Origin: a virus
DNA: 20,053 bases
Strand: one strand, 5' to 3'
Virus record (IMG/VR): IMGVR_UViG_3300030294_000189
Span: 1 to 20,053 of that record
How positions within the stretch are numbered: position 1 is the stretch's first letter; each line of letters opens with the position of its first letter. The position numbers were made by a program, and so were the translations under genes. Shown here in pieces: positions 11,010 to 19,881 of this stretch. Below the pieces are notes generated by a model, which saw nothing but the letters and a program-made list of their open reading frames with translations, was not told the DNA's origin and ran no database searches.

Positions 11010-11282
11010 CTATTCTATAATTTCCCAATCCTCTGCCAAGCAATCATTTATGCTTGGAACCCATGTTGATATTGTTCCCTTAACATTCTTTATTGCTAAA
11101 TACGGTTCATAAGGTACCCTATCACCAAATTCGTTTCTTGCATTTTCTGTACACGCTTTGTAACTTGCGGCCGGAACATAATAAATATACATTCCTTTAC
11201 CATTCCAACCTTTTCTAGCAACCTTGCCACCAACTTTTAATACTGCTAAAGCATCTCCAAAGTTTAATTGTGTTCTTTCCAT
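11010..11282 (-). CDS. tad2: Tad2 / DUF2829 family anti-Thoeris protein
   Basis: 90 residues from the ATG at 11280-11282, chosen because GGGGTGA lies 4-5 bases upstream; an in-frame start at 11345 lacks a ribosome site. The family pattern (PF11195, DUF2829) is clear: LNFGDALAVLKVGGKVARKGWNGKG (residues 5-29), then MYIYYVPAASY, then YEPYLAIKNVKGTISTWVPS, ending DCLAEDWEIIE. Tad2 proteins bind and sequester the cyclic ADP-ribose-type signal made by Thoeris ThsB, blocking abortive defence; some bind other defence nucleotides. The family is secure; activity against a given system is inference. It has its own promoter (11336-11364) and follows a terminator, so it behaves as a separate transcription unit inside the late region. 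Confidence 0.88.
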   Translation of the reverse strand: MERTQLNFGDALAVLKVGGKVARKGWNGKGMYIYYVPAASYKACTENARNEFGDRVPYEPYLAIKNVKGTISTWVPSINDCLAEDWEIIE

Positions 11283-11335
11283 ATACTCACCCCTTTTATA
11301 TCCATAATAATTACTTAACATAATCTTATAAACTA

Positions 11336-12105: not shown

Positions 12106-13326
12106 TTACTTTTTAGCTGCATTTGTGGCTTGTTGACTAATAGAACGGTCGAACTCTTGAACGGTCGCCCTCTCGTTCTTAGGTCGAATATTAGCTGCAT
12201 TGCTGAATTGTTTATATTCTGCCCTTTGTTGTTGTAGCTTGATGCTTGAAGCTTTAAATTCTGCATCTAATCCACTTTCTTTATAAGCTATGATGCTTCT
12301 TTTAGTTGCCCTCATTGCAGTTTCAATTTTCCTTTGATATTGTGTAGCTTCATAGCAAGTATAATTCTTGCCTTTATAATCAAAATTGGGCGGGTCTATA
12401 TTCTTTAATTGTTCATCAGTATAAGTTCTAATACTTGCTTGTGGTATGAATACTGCATACGAATGGCGACAATTATAGCCTTCAAGCCCCGCACCCATTC
12501 CTAGCCCTGTTGATTCAACTAAATTAGGATAATCTTTATCACTACCATTGACCTTATACACCTTTCCTTGCCACGCTTGATGATTTCCTACACCCACACC
12601 AGTTCTTGCACCCGCATGAGCAGTTACTTCTACATATTGCTCATTCTTATCCTCAATTATTTTATTCATATTAAAATCAATCATTTGTTGATTCATTTGA
12701 TGAGTTGAGGTAAGAACTGCCCTCCTCGTTGCAACATCAATTTGGTTTGACCAGTTACTTTCATAATCAACATATCGCAATCCCGAATCTGTCATTTTCT
12801 TGACCGCCTGTTTTATAGCTAAATTGTAGTCGCTAACCCCACTTTGAACCTTTAATTGAGCAATATTAAGTTGTTCTTGATAAAACTTCGCTATAGGCTT
12901 ATATACAACGTGACCATTAACATTTTCAGCAAAACCCATACTTTGAGTTATATTTTCTATATCACCTTTTGTATTTTTAATTGCTGATGCTAAATAATCT
13001 TTTAAGGCTTGGCTCTCATTTAATCGTATTGTTTTAAGTCCCGCTGCTTTGTATATTTCTGATTCTGCTGCAATTGATACTGCTGCAATTTGTGGGAATA
13101 AAGATTCTATTTGAGAATATGATAGGTTTAATGTCGCTGCAATCTTCGCTTCAATGTTTCTTATTCCGTATAATTCCGCTTGATTTTTCTGCCATTCTGC
13201 ACTACTTGTAATCGTGGCTGTTTTTTTTAAACGTCTACTAAAGTCCAAAATCACGAACTCTTCTAATTGTGAAAATAAATCTACTATATTGTTTGGAATT
13301 GATTCTAATTGCGAAGGTGTAAGCAT
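12106..13326 (-). CDS. Phage minor capsid protein 2 (MuF/SPP1 gp7-like minor head protein)
   Basis: 406 residues. The N-terminus (LTPSQLESIPNNIVDLFSQLEEFVILDFSRRLKK) and AEWQKNQAELYGIRNIEAKIAATL fit Phage_min_cap2 (PF06152). The MuF-like core follows: AHAGARTGVGVGNHQAWQGKVY near residues 233-254 and LEGYNCRHSYAVF near 280-292 with the N-C-R-H motif. The C-terminus is basic and helical. The protein binds near the portal and is injected or helps portal incorporation in related phages. It normally follows the portal directly; here nine small genes lie between them, and its ATG comes immediately after the stop of the last of these, with GAAGGTGAG as ribosome site. Confidence 0.88.
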   Translation of the reverse strand: MLTPSQLESIPNNIVDLFSQLEEFVILDFSRRLKKTATITSSAEWQKNQAELYGIRNIEAKIAATLNLSYSQIESLFPQIAAVSIAAESEIYKAAGLKTIRLNESQALKDYLASAIKNTKGDIENITQSMGFAENVNGHVVYKPIAKFYQEQLNIAQLKVQSGVSDYNLAIKQAVKKMTDSGLRYVDYESNWSNQIDVATRRAVLTSTHQMNQQMIDFNMNKIIEDKNEQYVEVTAHAGARTGVGVGNHQAWQGKVYKVNGSDKDYPNLVESTGLGMGAGLEGYNCRHSYAVFIPQASIRTYTDEQLKNIDPPNFDYKGKNYTCYEATQYQRKIETAMRATKRSIIAYKESGLDAEFKASSIKLQQQRAEYKQFSNAANIRPKNERATVQEFDRSISQQATNAAKK

Positions 13327-13452
13327 CTACTCACCTTCTTCCCTTAAAAGTTGTTTAACTTTGTCTAAAACATCATAGTAATCAACATCATAAAAATCTA
13401 TAGCTTTCTCTATGCTATCTTTTATTTGTTCTAATTCTTCTTTATTAAACAT
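13327..13452 (-). CDS. 41-residue acidic helical protein, function unknown
   Basis: Reading on the minus strand from the ATG at 13450-13452, the frame gives a 41-residue protein beginning FNKEELEQIKDSIEKAIDFY after Met and ending LLREEGE. It is acidic and predicted fully helical. The start overlaps the preceding stop codon (TAATG), and GAGGTG lies 8 bases upstream, so it is very likely translated. Its stop codon directly abuts the minor head start codon, suggesting coupled translation. I recognise no family. Confidence 0.75.
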   Translation of the reverse strand: MFNKEELEQIKDSIEKAIDFYDVDYYDVLDKVKQLLREEGE

Positions 13453-13658
13453 TACTGCAACACCTCAATTATCTTATCTTTTATTTCTTCCTCTGATAGT
13501 GTTTTGTCTGTAGGTATTCTTATATTAGCTTCTTTAATTAATGTATAGTCAAAGTTAACATCTATTGCAATCAATCTTTTTTTAGCTGGTAAGGCTACAT
13601 ATTCAGTTATTTGAAATACTTTTTCTATTGAATTAATTATTATTTTATCCTTATCCAC
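13452..13658 (-). CDS. 68-residue hypothetical protein
   Basis: The GTG start at 13656-13658 overlaps the preceding stop (TAGTG), with GAGGGGGA about 9 bases upstream. The protein (DKDKIIINSIEKVFQITEYV, then PAKKRLIAIDVNFDYTLI, then a C-terminal helix SEEEIKDKIIEVLQ) looks like a small alpha/beta fold. No family recognised. It belongs to a tightly overlapping gene run from 14208 to 13326. Confidence 0.75.
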   Translation of the reverse strand: MDKDKIIINSIEKVFQITEYVALPAKKRLIAIDVNFDYTLIKEANIRIPTDKTLSEEEIKDKIIEVLQ

Positions 13659-14008
13659 TACAATTCCCCCTCATATTTAATTTTTAATTCTGCTTTTGCT
13701 TTTTTGATTTCTTTTAGTATATCTTCCATTTTTCTATTATTTTCTACTATCTCTAAATCCATCTGTGCGTTATACCCATATTCTAATTGTTTCATTATTA
13801 CACTATTCAATTTTTTAATGAATCCTATCTTCCTTTGTTTATCCCTTGTCTCCCCGTCTGTAACATCAATTAAATATTTAGTTTTGCATTTAGGGCATTT
13901 AATAAACTGAATATTAATTCCTTTATATTTAGTTAAATACTTAGTTACAATTGGTGCATTTAAAAAGGTTAGTTCCTCTTTGCATTTATCACATATTATT
14001 TTATTCAT
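13658..14008 (-). CDS. Zinc-ribbon-like small protein with two CxxC pairs
   Basis: 116 residues. CDKC at residues 6-9 and CPKC near 38-41 make a plausible four-cysteine zinc site separated by about 28 residues. The C-terminal half (residues 65-116) is Lys/Glu-rich and helical, probably coiled coil (NNRKMEDILKEIKKAKAELK). The ATG overlaps the upstream gene by 4 bases, and GAGGGGG lies 10 bases before it. Such proteins often bind nucleic acid or a protein partner, but the function cannot be assigned. Confidence 0.75.
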   Translation of the reverse strand: MNKIICDKCKEELTFLNAPIVTKYLTKYKGINIQFIKCPKCKTKYLIDVTDGETRDKQRKIGFIKKLNSVIMKQLEYGYNAQMDLEIVENNRKMEDILKEIKKAKAELKIKYEGEL

Positions 14009-14208
14009 AATCTTATAACCCCCTCTTTAGCATTAATAACTTTAGCACCAACAACCTCAATATTAATTCCATCATCTTTTAAATTGAACTCTATTGTTTT
14101 TCTGATGCATTTGTATTCTTTCGGTTTGTGTGGTCCACCTATGAAGTATATCTTGTTAGCTTTTCTGTCTTTCTTGGCTTGTTTCTTTCTGTGAGATTGC
14201 TTATTCAT
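14005..14208 (-). CDS. 67-residue basic protein, function unknown
   Basis: The N-terminus is very basic (NKQSHRKKQAKKDRKANK), followed by a short beta-rich part (TIEFNLKDDGINIEVVGAKV). The basic tail suggests nucleic-acid contact, but no family is recognised. SD AGGGATAAGGA precedes the ATG, and the end overlaps the next gene by 4 bases. Confidence 0.7.
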   Translation of the reverse strand: MNKQSHRKKQAKKDRKANKIYFIGGPHKPKEYKCIRKTIEFNLKDDGINIEVVGAKVINAKEGVIRL

Positions 14209-14220
14209 TCCTTATCCCTC

Positions 14221-14421
14221 CTATGAACCACTATTAGCAACTAATATAACTTGTTCTGTATTCATATCTATTTTAGCTACTTTTAATTTAGCCTTTCTAA
14301 AATCACTACTATTTAGCCTTGCACATCTTTCTGCATGAAGTTCATCTTTTGCTATTACTACCATTGCATAATCTTCAACATAGCTTACTCTATCAGTTCT
14401 TTCTACTTTAAAACATTCCAT
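14221..14421 (-). CDS. 66-residue hypothetical phage protein
   Basis: Pattern: FKVERTDRVSYVEDYAMVVI, then AKDELHAERCARLNSSDF, then a C-terminal strand pair ending EQVILVANSGS. The R-T-D-x-V-x-Y...A-x-V-V-I-A-x-x-E-x-x-A arrangement resembles a small alpha/beta protein that I believe recurs in Firmicute phages without known function. SD GGAGGGG precedes the ATG. A candidate extended -10 promoter lies about 30 bases upstream, so this gene may start its own transcript. Confidence 0.75.
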   Translation of the reverse strand: MECFKVERTDRVSYVEDYAMVVIAKDELHAERCARLNSSDFRKAKLKVAKIDMNTEQVILVANSGS

Positions 14422-14451
14422 ACCATTACCCCTCCATTACTAATTGTAATT

Positions 14452-14460
14452 ATTATAGCA
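14452..14460 (-). promoter_or_regulatory. Candidate extended -10 promoter
   Basis: The minus strand reads TGCTATAAT: a perfect -10 box (14452-14457) with a TGN extension and no convincing -35 box. It would start a transcript near 14445, about 24 bases before the 66-residue gene, and so serve the run of genes leading into the minor head protein. Confidence 0.4.
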
Positions 14461-14475
14461 TTTATTACCATAACT

Positions 14476-14664
14476 TTATATTGTATTAGTTATTTTCAAT
14501 ACCCCTTCTTTGCTTAATATAGTCGCTTGGCGTTTTCCTAACAGTTTGTAATCTTCTCCTTCGATTAAGTTCTTTAATCTGCTATGAAGCGTCTGTATTG
14601 GTATGTCATATTCTGTTGATACTTCCTTTAGGGTTTTTATGTCTTTTAGTGTTAATTGTTGCAT
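14476..14664 (-). CDS. Small HTH-like DNA-binding protein
   Basis: 62 residues. LKDIKTLKEVSTEYDIPIQT (residues 6-25) followed by LHSRLKNL reads as helix-turn-helix of the excisionase/Cox type, where EVSTEYDIP would be the first helix and turn and QTLHSRLKNL the recognition helix. EGEDYKLLGKRQATILSKEGVLKI follows as a small wing. Short one-domain regulators of this shape are common in phages. The target is unknown; the palindrome in the promoter at 15525-15553, upstream of the same cassette, is an obvious candidate. SD AGAGGTGACAGG precedes the ATG. Confidence 0.7.
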   Translation of the reverse strand: MQQLTLKDIKTLKEVSTEYDIPIQTLHSRLKNLIEGEDYKLLGKRQATILSKEGVLKITNTI

Positions 14665-14678
14665 CCTGTCACCTCTTA

Positions 14679-14861
14679 TTATTTAAATTCTTGTAACATT
14701 TTAGAAATTAGTTCTATTCTTTCTCTATAATATTTTTCAGACCTTGCAGATATATTTTTCGATACTTGTTCCTCTAAATAATCCTTATAGTTAACAAGTG
14801 CATCTTCTACGCAATTTTTCTCTTCTTTCGCTTCACATTCAATTATGAATTTACTTTTCAT
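14679..14861 (-). CDS. 60-residue hypothetical helical protein
   Basis: Charged, mostly helical protein (KSKFIIECEAKEEKNCVEDA at the start; KYYRERIELISKMLQEFK at the end) with two cysteines but no metal-binding pattern. SD AGAGGTGAGGAT lies directly before the ATG. No family recognised. It is one of the promoter-proximal genes of the small-gene cassette. Confidence 0.65.
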   Translation of the reverse strand: MKSKFIIECEAKEEKNCVEDALVNYKDYLEEQVSKNISARSEKYYRERIELISKMLQEFK

Positions 14862-14885
14862 ATCCTCACCTCTTAATTAATATTT

Positions 14886-14912
14886 GAGTTGTTGCATATT
14901 TTACAACAACTC
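14886..14912. repeat. Perfect 9-bp inverted repeat between two cassette genes
   Basis: GAGTTGTTG (14886-14894) and CAACAACTC (14904-14912) flank a 9-base spacer. On the minus strand, the coding direction, AAATATT follows rather than a U-tract, so it is not a normal leftward terminator; on the plus strand only four T residues follow. It could stabilise mRNA or bind a protein. Confidence 0.6.
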
Positions 14913-14919
14913 TTTTGGA

Positions 14920-15138
14920 TTATTGTTCATAATAAAATTGACTAACGTATTCTGAATTATTCCAAAAATCTTCTATCTGTTTTAACTCCTTTATATTTAT
15001 TTTTTGTTTATTTATTGTTATGAAATTCCCGCTTTTTAATTCTTTAAGTTGTACTCCATTTGATTTCCAACCATGTTTCCCAAAAGGTTTATTTGAATTA
15101 ACTATTATTCTTCCGCTCCAGTCTTTTTTAATTTCCAT
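14920..15138 (-). CDS. 72-residue hypothetical protein
   Basis: Pattern: KKDWSGRIIVNSNKPFGKHG, then a beta-rich centre (SGNFITINKQKINIKELKQI) and an aromatic C-terminus (EDFWNNSEYVSQFYYEQ). Good SD AAGGGGTGA before the ATG. No family recognised. It is the second gene of the small-gene cassette. Confidence 0.7.
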   Translation of the reverse strand: MEIKKDWSGRIIVNSNKPFGKHGWKSNGVQLKELKSGNFITINKQKINIKELKQIEDFWNNSEYVSQFYYEQ

Positions 15139-15160
15139 AATATCACCCCTTAAATTATTT

Positions 15161-15187
15161 GCAGCTTTTAAGGTAGCTGCTGACCTT
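15161..15187 (-). other. Two mutually exclusive hairpins in the gap after the first cassette gene
   Basis: GCAGCT (15161-15166) pairs with AGCTGC (15175-15180). Overlapping this, AAGGT (15170-15174) pairs with ACCTT (15183-15187). Only one stem can form at a time. Neither is followed by a U-tract on the minus strand. The pair lies between a stop codon and the next ribosome site. Confidence 0.4.
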
Positions 15188-15192
15188 TATTT

Positions 15193-15480
15193 TTATAATA
15201 CGAAACTATGTGAAATATAAGTCTTTTCCTCTTCTACTACTTCAAAATCAAATGTGTAATGATTATCTTCGCTTTCAAGTGGTTTGTTTGATTGTGCATA
15301 AGTTGCCATATCTTCTAATGAATCTTTATCCTCTATTCCATTTGCTAATTCGTTGTATCCTCTTTTAGCCATTTCTTTAGCTAAGTCTTTTAATATTCCT
15401 TTAGTTGTTTTTGCTTTGCTGAATCCATCTATTACTGCTATTGTTCCGTTTGCTCTTATATCTAAAGTTACATTTGTCAT
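15193..15480 (-). CDS. 95-residue hypothetical protein, first gene of the small-gene cassette
   Basis: Pattern: TNVTLDIRANGTIAVIDGFS (beta strands), then a helical part with KAKTTKGILKDLAKEMAKRGYNELANG, then an acidic stretch and a final beta segment (NHYTFDFEVVEEEKTYISHS). The first 25 residues look like a small beta-hairpin. No family recognised. It directly follows a strong promoter with a palindrome in its spacer (15525-15553), and AAAGGGG precedes the ATG, so it should be the most strongly expressed cassette gene. Confidence 0.75.
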   Translation of the reverse strand: MTNVTLDIRANGTIAVIDGFSKAKTTKGILKDLAKEMAKRGYNELANGIEDKDSLEDMATYAQSNKPLESEDNHYTFDFEVVEEEKTYISHSFVL

Positions 15481-15524
15481 ATTTAAAACCCCTTTAAATT
15501 TATTTGTATCTATCTGATAATCTT

Positions 15525-15553
15525 ATAATATCATTAACGTTAATGTATGTCAA
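15525..15553 (-). promoter_or_regulatory. Strong promoter with an operator-like palindrome in the spacer
   Basis: The -35 box is a perfect TTGACA (15548-15553), the spacer is exactly 17 bases, and the -10 box is TATTAT (15525-15530). Within the spacer lies CATTAACGTTAATG (15532-15545), a perfect 14-bp palindrome. A repressor bound there would block RNA polymerase. Transcription should start near 15518 and serve the small-gene cassette. This is the best-scoring promoter by eye in the window. Confidence 0.8.
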
Positions 15554-15585: not shown

Positions 15586-15621
15586 CAAAACAAAAACACC
15601 ACCTAATTAATAGATGATGTT
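15586..15621 (-). terminator. Rho-independent terminator, second of a tandem pair after portal
   Basis: On the minus strand AACATCATCTA pairs with TAGGTGGTGTT (11 bp, G-U pairs only in this strand) around a 5-base loop. A T-rich run, TTTTTGTTTTG, follows. It sits about 30 bases upstream of the cassette -35 box and isolates that promoter from the portal transcript. Confidence 0.75.
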
Positions 15622-15669
15622 TTCTATATTAACTCTCCAAAAGAAGCTTCTATGACATTGTATCATAAA

Positions 15670-15710
15670 CAAATAATAAAAGCACCTTTATAATTTAATA
15701 AAGATGCTTT
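15670..15710 (-). terminator. Rho-independent terminator, first of a tandem pair after portal
   Basis: On the minus strand AAAGCATCTTTAT pairs with ATAAAGGTGCTTT (13 bp with one G-U pair) around a 6-base loop, over 15679-15710. TTTTATTATTTG follows. It lies about 85 bases after the portal stop codon. Confidence 0.75.
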
Positions 15711-15793: not shown

Positions 15794-17245
15794 TTATTTT
15801 GGAACGTTATCGAATGGTGAAGGAGGTATTAAAGGTTCATTTTGCATCATCTCTTCGGCTTCTTTTTGAGTTACTCCATACCTCTTCATTACATAGTATA
15901 CTGGCTTGATAATACTTGATGTTACATCTAAATACATTTGCGCTAATTCCGTTTCCTTATCCACGATAATTGAATCATCCCAACTGAACGAAATCTCCCT
16001 TTCAACATCTATTGATTTAACTCCTAAGTTTGCAAGTTGTCCCCATACACTCATTCCATATGCCAAAGTCTCTAAAGCATTTTGCATTGATTTTTGAATA
16101 TCCGCTACAGTTTGGTAACTTTTTTGTTTCCCCGCCTTGATTTCTGTTGCGGTCTTTGCGTCTGTAGTTACTCCTCTTTCTTGATTGGATATTGTTCCAG
16201 TTGCTAATCCTGTCAAGAACTCTACTTGCTTTAATAGTTGATTATATCCATGGTATAAACTAGAATCTCTTATAGTTGGACTAAATACATTATATTGACT
16301 TGTTCCTGTTGCAGTTGAATCAATATCTAACTTTCTGTATAGCCTTTCTTTTCCTACTGGCGTTACTGTATTACCGTATTCGTCTTTTTTTAGCATATCT
16401 GCATCTATGTCGATTGCAAGTTCTGTTCCTTCATATTCCCAAATTATCCTCGAATATTGTTCATCAACTTTTCTTAATATATTATTAGTTAATCTTGAAA
16501 ATATAGATACCCCTAAAGGAGATGTTGAATCAACACTATTTGCAAGTGGCATCTTGAAGTAAGAAAATAAAGGCTTGTCTACATTTTTAATTAATGTTTC
16601 GGGTTGTAATCCCGCCCATTCTTCAACTTCTGTTAAGTCTATTTGTTGACCTAAGCTGCTATCCATTGATATTCTTGATTGATTATAGTTTTGCTTTTTA
16701 AATGCCATGTTCTTGATTACATATCCTTCATTCTCCAAGTTATGATACTCTAGTCTTGTGTATGTATAGTCACCTCTGATTAATGTTTCAGGTAATATTG
16801 CTCCCGTTATATCTCCTCTTGAATTATAGGCAGTCGGAAAGAACATATCTGCATGGACAACATCAACTTCTACGTGGCCATTTGATATATAAGGTTTAAA
16901 TACTAATCCACCTTTTGCTATTCCATATTCAGTGTAATTTCTAATATTGTCAATAACCGCTTGATATTCTTGATTTAAAAAGTCATTATTACTGATCTCT
17001 GACTTAAATTCTATTGTTACTAATCGTGCTAACTCTGATGCTATTCCCGCACCTATATTTGCACTAAATACCGTTGTATTATTTATCCACGGTGCTTTAT
17101 CCTCATATATTTGTGTCCATAAATCAATATTAAGTGCCATTTCATTACTTACTGCAATATCAACACCGACTTTACTTTGTATTGTACTTCTATTATTAAA
17201 CAAATTCATTATCCCCCTTATCCATGCTTTTATATTTTGAAACAT
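15794..17245 (-). CDS. Portal protein, A118/SPP1 family
   Basis: 483 residues, normal portal length. The protein forms the dodecameric ring through which DNA enters the head and to which connectors attach. Visible family features: FQNIKAWIRGIMNLF at the start; WTQIYEDKAPWINN (residues 42-56); ELARLVTIEFKSEIS; YGIAKGGLVFKPYISNGHVEVDVVHADMFFPT (108-139); PLGVSIFSRLTNNILRKVDEQYSRI, the long central helix; EFLTGLATGTISNQERGVTTDAKTATEIKAGKQKSYQT (350-388); and an acidic, Pro-rich C-terminus. This matches the A118-type putative portal proteins. SD AGAGGTGAGTAA precedes the ATG. Downstream come tandem terminators rather than the usual minor head gene. Confidence 0.92.
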   Translation of the reverse strand: MFQNIKAWIRGIMNLFNNRSTIQSKVGVDIAVSNEMALNIDLWTQIYEDKAPWINNTTVFSANIGAGIASELARLVTIEFKSEISNNDFLNQEYQAVIDNIRNYTEYGIAKGGLVFKPYISNGHVEVDVVHADMFFPTAYNSRGDITGAILPETLIRGDYTYTRLEYHNLENEGYVIKNMAFKKQNYNQSRISMDSSLGQQIDLTEVEEWAGLQPETLIKNVDKPLFSYFKMPLANSVDSTSPLGVSIFSRLTNNILRKVDEQYSRIIWEYEGTELAIDIDADMLKKDEYGNTVTPVGKERLYRKLDIDSTATGTSQYNVFSPTIRDSSLYHGYNQLLKQVEFLTGLATGTISNQERGVTTDAKTATEIKAGKQKSYQTVADIQKSMQNALETLAYGMSVWGQLANLGVKSIDVEREISFSWDDSIIVDKETELAQMYLDVTSSIIKPVYYVMKRYGVTQKEAEEMMQNEPLIPPSPFDNVPK

Positions 17246-17263: not shown

Positions 17264-17383
17264 TTATATTAACCACATAACTAATTTACATATTCCATAT
17301 ATAGCTCCTCCAACTAAGCTAACGATTCCAATCGCTGCTAAACATTCCATTATTATAAATATTTTTTCTATACATTTAAGCAT
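17264..17383 (-). CDS. 39-residue single-span membrane protein
   Basis: The ATG at 17381-17383 has GAGGGGA 9-10 bases upstream. It encodes 39 residues with a short N-terminal LKCIEKIFIIMECL segment and a hydrophobic span IGIVSLVGGAIYGICKLVMWLI that ends the protein. Three cysteines are present. It lies 18 bases before the portal gene. No family recognised; possible roles include a membrane-acting toxin, a superinfection factor or a small accessory peptide. Confidence 0.6.
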   Translation of the reverse strand: MLKCIEKIFIIMECLAAIGIVSLVGGAIYGICKLVMWLI

Positions 17384-17570
17384 TTAATAAAATCCCCTCT
17401 CTTTTTACCAATTTTATCGTTTAATTCTCAATTAGACTTGAAATATTTTTATATCTGCGGTGGACTAATGTCACCAAACCATTTAAAATAGCCATTGTTG
17501 TATTATCAATTAGAACTTTAATTATTGCGTTAAATCTAAATTTAACGTAATGTTACATAATGTTTAACTA
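17384..17570. other. Gap between two small membrane genes, with an inverted repeat
   Basis: No gene is supported in these 187 bases. The frame ending at 17421 is open for about 45 codons, but its only ATG (17493-17495, 24 codons) has no ribosome site. At 17528-17547, CGTTAAAT and ATTTAACG flank a 4-base spacer: a perfect 8-bp inverted repeat, possibly an operator or an RNA hairpin. Confidence 0.5.
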
Positions 17571-17696
17571 TTATTTAAGGTTTTTCAATATAATATCCAA
17601 CAACCCTATCCATTCAAATTTAAATAAATTAATTTGAATACTAAACCCACTTAGTAATATTATTATAATAGCTATCCACATTAGTATTTTATCCAT
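17571..17696 (-). CDS. 41-residue single-span membrane protein
   Basis: The ATG at 17694-17696 begins 1 base after the terL stop codon, and GGAAGGGA at the end of terL serves as ribosome site. The protein has MDKILMW, a hydrophobic span AIIIILLSGFSI, then a second amphipathic hydrophobic part with FEWIGLLDIILKNLK. It is likely membrane-inserted. No family recognised. Its tight coupling to terL supports real translation. Confidence 0.65.
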   Translation of the reverse strand: MDKILMWIAIIIILLSGFSIQINLFKFEWIGLLDIILKNLK

Positions 17697-17697
17697 A

Positions 17698-18956
17698 TTA
17701 CTGTCCCTTCCTTTTCCAAATGTCATTTGTGCTATATCTAGTTGCATCTATGAAATGATTATCTTTATCCGGATAACTATTGATTATGTTACCATCTTTA
17801 TCTACTTCATGTTCATACTTCAAAAACTCTTTTGCTGCATGAGGGCATCTTTTATTATCTATAATTATAGAGTTCAATGATTGTAACCATTTCATAGAAT
17901 ACTCTACACTTCCAGGCCCTTTTATAGCACCCCTAGCAAATAATCCATAAGAACGATAATCTTCAATACTTTTTGGCTCTGCTGAATCACAAATAACTTT
18001 ATCATTAGGTTTAATACCATGTTCATTGACCATAATGTCATAAGTAGCCTTGTTGGATTTCTTATTTTCTCTATGTTCATCAAATATATAAAGATTTCTT
18101 CTTGCTGCATCATAGTGAGTTCTAACAAATGCCCAAGGATCGGGAAACCAACCAAAATCACACGCTTGACTAATTCTATCAAATACATTATTAATTTCAT
18201 CATCTGTAATAGGCCCTATAATAACATTATCAAATATATCTCTACCAGTTCCAGTAACTTTCCCTAAATAATCATGTTCGTATTGTGTTGGCCTAGTTTC
18301 TTTCATATGCTCCGCTTCTAGTATAAATTGTTCTCCAAGCCATTCTCTATTTATTGTTGTATAATCGCTGTGATGTACTAACTTATCGTTTCTTTCTTCT
18401 AATACTTCCTCATTACACCAGTTCCTTTGACTTGCGGGTGGATTGAATGAATAAAATACAAAAAACTTTGGGCCACCTCTCATTAATGATTGGTTTATGT
18501 TATCTACTTTATCTATACTTTCAAATTCGTCTATTTCTTCATACCAAATATATTTTATATAACCTTTGGCCACTTTAGTTGATTTTAATTTCTTTGGTTT
18601 GTCAGCGCCTTTGAATAGTATGACTTGTCCTGTTGGTTTGTATGTTATTTGTAACTTACTGTCGGGTATATACCAATCATCTTCAACACCTAGTGCATAT
18701 ATTGCCCATGTTATTTGCTCGTAAACCGAACCTCTTAGCGTGTCTTTAACTCTTCTTATGACTACCGCATTGGTCATTTTCCCTTCTTGTGCATCTTTCA
18801 TTATTCCAAGGACTATTTCTAACGATATAAAGGAACTCTTTGTGCTACCACGTCCACCTATTTAAGCCAATAATGAGTATGTAACCCTAACTTTAAATCT
18901 CTATGTATTTTATAAAAACTTTCCGCTATTATACTTTTCAAACTCACACTTAGCAT
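17698..18956 (-). CDS. terL: Terminase large subunit, split by a frameshift before Walker A
   Basis: TerL is the packaging motor: an ATPase plus an RNase H-like nuclease. From the ATG at 18954-18956 the first frame gives 32 residues ending THYWLK, then TAG (18858-18860). The rest continues in another frame from GGT at 18856-18858 with the Walker A motif GGRGSTKSS, then the Walker B-like IWYEEIDEF (about 18524-18550), C-motif region SFNPP, and nuclease aspartates in ACDFGW, VICDSAE and NHFIDATRY. The ORF stop is at 17698. All catalytic residues are present once the frame is joined. The first ATG in the second frame is at 18801, after Walker A, so internal initiation would lose ATPase function. 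No slippery heptamer is seen at the junction (CTTAAATAGG). The shift is one base lost or two (TA) gained. Confidence 0.88.
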
Positions 18957-18972
18957 ATAACCACCACCCTTC

Positions 18973-19881
18973 TTATATATCGTCAACTATCCTTACTGGT
19001 TCTTTTGTTGTATCTCCATTACCTTTTATTTCTTTAGCTAGCTTTTCATTCTGCAACCTTCTATTCTCTAGTTCAAGCTTAGTCTTTTCTTCATCATTCA
19101 ATAAGTTGCAATGTTTATTCAAGAAATCCATAGCTTTCATCTTATCAGCTAATTTAAACTTAATCCCATCCTTGCCCTCTGATACTTCACTTATTATACT
19201 TGTATCTACTCCAACACTATTTTTTAAATCTACATAACTGTATTCCTTTATCTTTTGTTGTCCTGTATCGGGATCTATAACCGGAATATCTTCACCATCA
19301 CTATTTTTAGTCCATTGTGGTATCTGTCTCACTCCAAACTCTACATATTCTCCTATGTCTGAAAAGGCTATATCTATATATTTTTGAATTAATCCTCTTG
19401 TTAGTGCTGCTTTATCCATCGTAACCTCTGTTAACTTATCTACCATTACTTTTATCTTAGCATTGTTTAGCAATTTGCTTGCATTAACTGCTGCGGTCAT
19501 ATAGTCGCAATTATAAGCCTTTAAATAAGCTTTGGTTTGGTTAAAACACTTTGAGTAATAAATACAGAAAAGCTTTTGCTTCTCATTAAGTTCCTCATTC
19601 TTCATTACTTCCTTAACCTCTATAGAAATATTATCTTTAGGTTCTTTCTTTGTACTTTTTTTATTGTTGGACTTGGTTTGTTGTACAACACTTTTTTTGT
19701 TGTCCTTTTTTTGTTGTACAACATTTATATCTTCGTCCCATTTGTCCCTCTTTTTCCATACTGCTATCTTCTTTTCATCTTCATTTATCATGTTGGCTAT
19801 TTCTCTATTGGTTATGTTACCTTTATGTTCTATGTATATTCCTTTTGCCTTATCTCTTTCGGGTGATCTTATTCTTGCCAT
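18973..19881 (-). CDS. terS: Terminase small subunit
   Basis: 302 residues. TerS recognises the packaging site and loads TerL. The N-terminal HTH (KGNITNREIANMINEDEKKI, residues about 19-38, then VWKKRDKW) is followed by a basic Gln/Lys linker with two 11-residue repeats (VVQQKKDNKKS and VVQQTKSNNKK, residues 54-75). A Terminase_2-type region comes next: LNEKQKLFCIYYSKCFNQTKAYLKAYNC (97-125), AAVNASKLLNNAKIK, then the oligomerisation part and a charged C-terminal coiled coil. This long, two-part form is typical of SPP1/A118-type headful phages. SD AGAAGGA precedes the ATG. A hairpin with a U-tract lies 23 bases upstream, leaving no room for a promoter between. Confidence 0.92.
   Translation of the reverse strand: MARIRSPERDKAKGIYIEHKGNITNREIANMINEDEKKIAVWKKRDKWDEDINVVQQKKDNKKSVVQQTKSNNKKSTKKEPKDNISIEVKEVMKNEELNEKQKLFCIYYSKCFNQTKAYLKAYNCDYMTAAVNASKLLNNAKIKVMVDKLTEVTMDKAALTRGLIQKYIDIAFSDIGEYVEFGVRQIPQWTKNSDGEDIPVIDPDTGQQKIKEYSYVDLKNSVGVDTSIISEVSEGKDGIKFKLADKMKAMDFLNKHCNLLNDEEKTKLELENRRLQNEKLAKEIKGNGDTTKEPVRIVDDI
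19661..19722. repeat. 33-bp tandem repeat with paired palindromes inside terS
   Basis: The perfect palindrome GTTGTACAAC occurs at 19680-19689 and 19713-19722, exactly 33 bases apart. GTTG also occurs at 19666 and 19699, again 33 apart. The unit encodes the 11-residue TerS linker repeat. The spacing is close to three helical turns, so both copies face the same side of the DNA. A pac-type recognition role is possible. Confidence 0.6.

What the first reader, a model, noticed from the sequence alone, without database searches (positions are those of the whole stretch)
13327..15553. Independently promoted cassette of nine unknown small genes inserted between portal and minor head genes
Seen: portal is followed by two tandem terminators, then a near-consensus promoter, then nine short genes (41-116 residues) that overlap or nearly touch, leading without a gap into the minor head gene. 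Known: in A118/SPP1-like phages the minor head gene normally follows the portal directly. Inference: this is an accessory island carried inside the head module, with its own regulation, an HTH-like protein and a CxxC/CxxC protein. Because a known anti-defence gene sits in a comparable unit a few kb away, these genes are the best candidates here for undescribed anti-defence, superinfection or host-takeover functions.
Basis: partly seen in the sequence, partly recalled or inferred. Interest (0 to 1): 0.65.

Follow-up and report, generated by a model that had tools for sequence, protein, structure and literature searches.

The report
Self-regulated accessory operon inside head genes
Between two capsid genes this clostridial-type phage carries an inserted operon of nine small genes, switched by its own promoter and probably by a DNA-binding protein it encodes; it is built like the operons in which other phages keep their anti-CRISPR genes, but what its genes do is untested.

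Summary
Nine coding ORFs (13327-15480) lie between portal and minor head gene behind terminator hairpins and a TTGACA-17-TATTAT promoter. In 37 of 48 measurable relatives the two head genes are 30 nt or less apart, so this is an insertion. Searching 2.9 million viral contigs with the promoter plus its palindrome found one other phage (L115/L116) with the same island at the same joint: g4, g5, g7, g8 kept in order, five genes replaced, two non-coding linkers 96-98% identical between unrelated neighbours.

The palindrome fills the -35/-10 spacer. Among all fetched loci (1.43 Mb) this layout occurs five times, always before an operon holding a g4 homologue (five of six g4 operons). So g4, a 62-aa winged-HTH protein, is most likely the operon's own repressor, as Aca proteins are for anti-CRISPR operons, one class of which also sits inside a head module.

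The cargo is most likely anti-defence or host-takeover genes (probability about 0.45); none matches a known inhibitor. It is not a classical moron: no terminator is seen downstream, so transcription should run on into the head genes.

The parts
15679..15710 (-). Terminator-like hairpin 1 downstream of portal; the counterpart in L115 is similar (AAGCACCTATATTAATTTATAGGTGCTTTT)
15592..15624 (-). Terminator-like hairpin 2 (not in L115)
15525..15553 (-). Sigma-A type promoter TTGACA-17-TATTAT, TGn
   Evidence: conserved in L115/L116
15532..15545 (.). Perfect 14-bp palindrome CATTAACGTTAATG filling the promoter spacer: probable operator of g4
15193..15480 (-). g1, 95 aa, orphan
15139..15192 (-). 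Linker 1, BLAST match 15136-15192 96.5% identical in L115 between unrelated genes; 6-bp hairpin, possible H-type pseudoknot by eye, just upstream of the g2 ribosome site
14920..15138 (-). g2, 72 aa, orphan
14862..14919 (-). Linker 2, 97.7% identical over 43 nt in L115; strong hairpin (z -6.2)
14679..14861 (-). g3, 60 aa; weak relative (27%) between TerL and portal in L031/L048; phrog_2037 E 3e-4
14476..14664 (-). g4, 62 aa winged HTH, probable autoregulator
14221..14421 (-). g5, 66 aa, most conserved cargo (86% to L115, dN/dS 0.18); relatives in an early prophage region (L110) and in large phage contigs (L119/L120)
14005..14208 (-). g6, 67 aa, basic N-terminus, orphan
13658..14008 (-). g7, 116 aa, CxxC/CxxC zinc ribbon plus helical tail, phrog_1315; relatives in late modules of other clostridial phages
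13452..13658 (-). g8, 68 aa, relative in L115 (36-41%)
13327..13452 (-). g9, 41 aa, ends at the minor head start; carries that gene's ribosome site

Best explanation
The island is an autoregulated accessory operon inserted between portal and minor head genes. Shown: insertion, promoter, palindrome in the spacer, an HTH gene in the operon, the same layout before other g4-type operons, and gene turnover between the two carriers. Inferred: on DNA entry no g4 protein is present, the strong promoter fires at once and makes the small proteins in a burst. g4 accumulates, binds the ACGT-centred palindrome as a dimer, blocks RNA polymerase and shuts the operon off, so that its transcription does not disturb the head genes lying directly downstream. 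The terminators after portal keep transcription from upstream out of the operon. The cargo most likely counters host defences or takes over host functions and is exchanged between phages one gene at a time. My estimates: regulated operon 0.9; g4 is its repressor 0.75; cargo mainly anti-defence or takeover 0.45.
For: Insertion: 37 of 48 non-duplicate relatives have a portal-minor head gap of 30 nt or less. Same island at the same joint in L115/L116, found by promoter sequence alone. Content turnover, with synonymous divergence of g5 0.38, g8 0.65 and g7 0.86 against 1.4-1.45 for portal and minor head, i.e. more recent exchange of those cargo genes than of the backbone. Operator: ACGT-centred palindrome exactly in the -35/-10 spacer in window, L115, L113, L111 and L114, in L111 and L114 extending to 20 and 26 bp; no other case in 1.43 Mb of held loci; five of six g4 operons have it. 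A perfect 12-bp ACGT-core palindrome occurs in only 1 of 223 control upstream regions. g4 folds as winged HTH, pLDDT 83, nearest solved folds pSK1 Par DNA-binding domain, Xis, MerR types. Literature: anti-CRISPR operons of Mu-like phages sit between head genes with own promoter, HTH gene and variable cargo (PMC4704812); Aca repeats always lie within the core promoter, and unrepressed transcription harms downstream genes (PMC9410906).
Against: No binding or expression data. No cargo protein matches a known inhibitor. The g4 family is small (six full members; four come from only three host genomes) and rare (3 of 207 genomes of one family, none in 50,697 phages or 72,556 plasmids at the sensitivity used). 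L112 lacks the operator. A 14-bp palindrome alone is not rare (3 in the window, 2.5 expected). The CTACGTAG promoter pattern also hits G115, where the g4 profile found no match. g7 relatives live in late modules, which fits late expression as well.
Confidence: 0.6

Rival explanations
1. The island is late-expressed: its promoter is an added late promoter and the small proteins are assembly, packaging or virion accessories made together with the head proteins.
For: No terminator between g9 and the minor head gene, g9 carries that gene's ribosome site. g7 relatives lie in TerS-TerL, minor head-scaffold or pre-tape-measure positions in seven of the eight loci whose neighbours I read.
Against: Near-consensus sigma-A promoter with operator, insulated by terminators from upstream late transcription. 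Most relatives assemble without any of these genes. No match to a structural family.
Confidence: 0.2
2. It is a lysogenic-conversion unit: transcribed from the prophage, kept low by g4, giving the host superinfection exclusion or other traits.
For: Own promoter independent of lytic control; similar logic is described for anti-CRISPR operons expressed from prophages (PMC4704812).
Against: Whether this phage is temperate is unknown: the 20-kb fragment shows no integrase or repressor. No known exclusion gene or clear membrane protein in the island.
Confidence: 0.15
3. g4 is an excisionase- or partition-type DNA-binding protein, or a mobility factor, and the spacer palindrome is the site of another regulator such as the phage or host repressor.
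For: Fold neighbours include Xis and pSK1 Par; phrog_2655 excisionase E 0.002; serine recombinases near g4 in L111 and near g7 in L095/L096.
Against: The palindrome travels with g4, not with any other shared gene, across phage and non-phage contigs. No recombinase in either island and no flanking direct repeats.
Confidence: 0.15

Closest known systems
acr-aca operon of Mu-like Pseudomonas phages (JBD30 type), between protease/scaffold and gpG genes
   Same: Inserted between conserved head genes; own promoter; HTH gene in the operon; repeat within the core promoter; fixed position with variable small-gene content
   Different: Different joint (portal-minor head); HTH gene inside the operon (4th of 9, 3rd in L115), not after the acr genes; MerR/Xis-like winged HTH that met no curated HTH family cut-off; nine cargo/regulator genes; no gene tested as an inhibitor
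Early anti-defence genes found through a shared promoter sequence in archaeal viruses (PMC11065993)
   Same: Conserved regulatory sequence leads to variable small genes; predicted winged-HTH autorepressor (Aca8)
   Different: Bacterial sigma-A promoter, one operon instead of many scattered genes; no functional test
Establishment operons of conjugative plasmids p576/pLS20 (PMC8708921)
   Same: Burst expression on entry, repressor operators at a conserved promoter, short inverted repeats in leaders thought to stabilise RNA
   Different: No sequence relation tested; plasmid, not phage
Moron of lambdoid phages
   Same: Insertion between genes adjacent in relatives, own promoter, lower GC (28% against 33-36%)
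   Different: Nine genes, terminators upstream, none downstream

Membership tests
acr-aca operon | HTH regulator gene within the operon | tested here: met
   g4, winged HTH model pLDDT 82.6 and weak HTH family matches
acr-aca operon | Inverted repeat inside the core promoter | tested here: met
   14-bp palindrome in the -35/-10 spacer, same layout in five of six g4 operons
acr-aca operon | Regulator belongs to a described Aca family | tested here: inconclusive
   No Aca library available; Pfam and NCBIfam give only sub-threshold HTH hits
acr-aca operon | Regulator represses the promoter | not testable with these tools
   needs reporter or binding assay
acr-aca operon | At least one gene inhibits a CRISPR-Cas or other defence system | not testable with these tools
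   no match to a known inhibitor; libraries are incomplete for inhibitors
Classical moron | Inserted between two genes adjacent in relatives | tested here: met
   37 of 48 relatives have a gap of 30 nt or less
Classical moron | Flanked by promoter and downstream terminator | tested here: not met
   promoter present; no terminator-like site on the - strand from 15592 down to 10000
Classical moron | Base composition differs from neighbours | tested here: met
   GC 28.2% against 35.5% (minor head) and 33.3% (portal)
Tad2 anti-Thoeris protein (nearby gene 11010-11288, not in the island) | PF11195 domain above curated cut-off | tested here: met
   89.3 bits, cut-off 25; binding of the signal molecule not testable
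phrog_1315 zinc-ribbon family (g7) | Profile match with two conserved CxxC pairs | tested here: met
   E 6e-12; four cysteines the only invariant residues in nine relatives

The most novel reading that the evidence does not exclude
g4 founds a new family of Aca-like autoregulators (MerR/Xis-type winged HTH, operator NNNWACGTWNNN in the promoter spacer) that marks anti-defence operons in clostridial phages and other clostridial contigs (the L114 operon carries an orphan C5 DNA methyltransferase). The head-module island would then be a reservoir of new inhibitors, swapped between conserved structured linkers.
Probability: 0.4. Interest if true: 0.75.

Novelty: new variant of a known kind. Interest (0 to 1): 0.55.

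Why it matters
If right, a small HTH gene plus a recognisable promoter gives a search handle for accessory operons in clostridial mobile elements, where few inhibitors are known (AcrIB2 is the only tested anti-CRISPR of C. difficile phages that I met in the papers read, PMC10732046). Five small proteins in this island and six in L115 have no counterpart in the other phage and become a short list for testing. The linkers, nearly identical between unrelated neighbours, would show how such genes are swapped without breaking the operon.

Tried and rejected
Concatenated cassette proteins against 50,697 phages and 72,556 plasmids: no match, also for single g4 relatives. Portal as a single query in genome and viral collections found only the same virus; alignments worked. 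Rfam on the island: no family. Operator pattern with 2 mismatches in 207 genomes: two hits without a related operon and control hits at the same level, judged chance. CTACGTAG promoter pattern: the two known g4 operons plus one hit in G115, where the g4 profile search had found nothing; control pattern 4 hits. Linker sequences occur in no other viral contig, so they are not a widespread element. Linker 2 hairpin has one broken pair in L115 and no covariation, so conserved RNA structure is not shown; the pseudoknot of linker 1 is by eye only. Direct repeats at the island ends as insertion marks: none convincing. Tad2 promoter checked for the same operator: absent. g5 fold: small beta-alpha-beta, only weak matches to uncharacterised phage proteins, one called RNA polymerase inhibitor (E 0.11), too weak to use. 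PADLOC: nothing usable.

Full report
What is there. The window is a 20,053-base virus record, a fragment of a tailed phage whose late genes run on the - strand. Portal (15794-17245) is followed by two terminator-like hairpins, a promoter at 15553-15525 and nine short ORFs that end exactly where the minor head gene (12106-13326) begins. All nine ORFs have their annotated frame as the best of six by the codon usage of the phage's own structural genes. A second sample holds the same virus over 4,972 bases with one difference (L004), so the arrangement is not an assembly accident. GC falls to 28.2% in the island, against 33-36% in the genes on either side.

Is it an insertion? I collected relatives by portal and minor head alignments. 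Of 48 non-duplicate relatives where both genes could be measured, 37 have 30 nt or less between them, 4 have 44-171 nt and 7 have 309-3309 nt. Both C. difficile Leicestervirus phages and C. celatum have 0-12 nt. Where I read the other large gaps they hold different genes, for example a GIY-type endonuclease in L044 and ParB/radical-enzyme-like genes in L020 (my reading of the sequences). Insertions also occur in neighbouring joints: L031/L048, whose terminases are 81% identical to the window's, carry a serine recombinase and two small genes, one like g3, between TerL and portal, and Ruminococcus phage RG-TP1 has a DUF2829/Tad2-like gene between minor head and scaffold. So the head module of this group is generally open to insertions.

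A second copy of the island. The promoter spacer holds a perfect 14-bp palindrome, CATTAACGTTAATG. Scanning 2.9 million viral contigs for TTGACANNNATTAACGTTAAT gave three contigs: the same virus and two contigs of a second phage, L115 and L116. L115 (TerS 69%, portal 54%, minor head 65% identical) has at the same joint a terminator, this promoter and small genes in the order 53 aa, 79 aa, g4-like (57%), 68, 101, 36 and 50 aa, g5-like (86%), g7-like (44-50%), g8-like (36-41%), 91 aa, minor head. Four genes are kept in order; five of the window are replaced. Synonymous divergence is 0.38 for g5, 0.65 for g8 and 0.86 for g7, against 1.4-1.45 for portal and minor head; g4 (1.26) is nearly as old as the backbone. 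Two spacers, g1-g2 and g2-g3, are 96-98% identical although the genes on their sides are mostly unrelated, and neither occurs in any other viral contig. They may be the places where genes are exchanged, or leader structures that protect or time the message; linker 2 folds as a strong hairpin (z -6.2), but one pair is broken in L115. I cannot decide between these.

The regulator. Homologues of g4 turned up in four Clostridium-family contigs. In three of them the operon holding g4 starts with a promoter whose -35/-10 spacer is filled by an ACGT-centred palindrome: GTTAACGTTAAT in L113 (one mismatch), ATCTACGTAGAT in L111 (20-bp palindrome in all) and ACCTACGTAGGT in L114 (26 bp). A scan of every locus held (1.43 Mb, both strands) for such a promoter finds exactly five distinct cases, and all five are g4 operons; the sixth g4 operon, L112, whose g4 has a longer tail, lacks it. 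In 223 control upstream regions a perfect 12-bp ACGT-core palindrome occurs once. AlphaFold2 gives g4 a winged helix-turn-helix fold (pLDDT 83), nearest in the PDB to the pSK1 Par DNA-binding domain, Xis and MerR types, at modest scores. The residue before the recognition-helix TL is K or R in the two CTACGTAG cases and Q, A or S in the three TTAACGTTAA cases, suggestive but n=5. I infer that g4 binds the palindrome and represses its own operon.

The cargo. g5 is under strong constraint (dN/dS 0.18); relatives are in a prophage early region between replication-type genes and TerS (L110) and among the many small genes of large phage contigs (L119/L120). g7 is a zinc ribbon (phrog_1315) whose relatives sit in terminase, head or tail modules of clostridial phages, in L095 and L096 directly after a serine recombinase. 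g1, g2, g6, g8 and g9 match nothing useful in Pfam, PHROGs or PADLOC. The island therefore mixes genes from early and late pools under one promoter.

How it probably works. The layout matches the acr-aca operons of Mu-like Pseudomonas phages, which lie between two head genes, carry a promoter, an HTH gene and a variable set of inhibitors (PMC4704812). For ten Aca families a repeat lies within the core promoter, and repression is needed because strong early transcription harms downstream genes (PMC9410906). The same logic fits here: no terminator separates the island from the minor head gene, so a strong unregulated promoter would disturb the head operon. Regulatory sequence has been used before to find anti-defence genes in archaeal viruses (PMC11065993). 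It works like an acr-aca operon; membership is not shown, because no inhibitor activity, repression or Aca-family match was demonstrated.

Verdict. Observation confirmed; interpretation partly supported and sharpened: a mosaic, probably self-repressed accessory operon. The anti-defence role is the best guess, at about 0.45, with late/structural accessory genes and lysogenic conversion as the main rivals.

Noticed in passing
window 18801-18986: TerL reading frame is broken: '...HTHYWLK*' then 'GGRGSTKSS' in another frame, whereas L031/L048 (81% identical) have an open frame there. Assembly error or a defective phage; L004 does not cover it.
   Followed up: partly
window 11010-11288: Tad2-like anti-Thoeris gene (PF11195) with its own promoter-like site between minor head and scaffold; RG-TP1 has a DUF2829 gene at the same joint.
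   Followed up: partly
L115 873-2276: In L115 TerS is 69% identical to the window's but TerL is not recognisably related to it: terminase subunits look mosaic.
   Followed up: no
L115 5291-5596 and L116 2463-2699: The two contigs of the second phage differ by an in-frame deletion of 69 nt in one island gene (101 against 78 aa).
   Followed up: no
L114 1703-10474: g4-type operon in a Clostridium-family contig followed by some 20 co-directional small genes, an orphan C5 DNA methyltransferase and membrane proteins, like a plasmid leading region.
   Followed up: partly
L095 8097-9067; L096 8370-9408: Zinc-ribbon gene of the g7 family directly behind a serine recombinase inside late modules; L096 also has an ACGT-core palindrome just upstream of the recombinase promoter.
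   Followed up: partly
L126 10890-10990: Remnant of a g4-type gene near a relaxase-like ORF, with a decayed TTGACG...TGTTAATG upstream.
   Followed up: no
window 17264-17747: Two further small ORFs (39-aa membrane peptide and 58 aa) between TerL and portal; L115 has a 42-aa ORF there.
   Followed up: no
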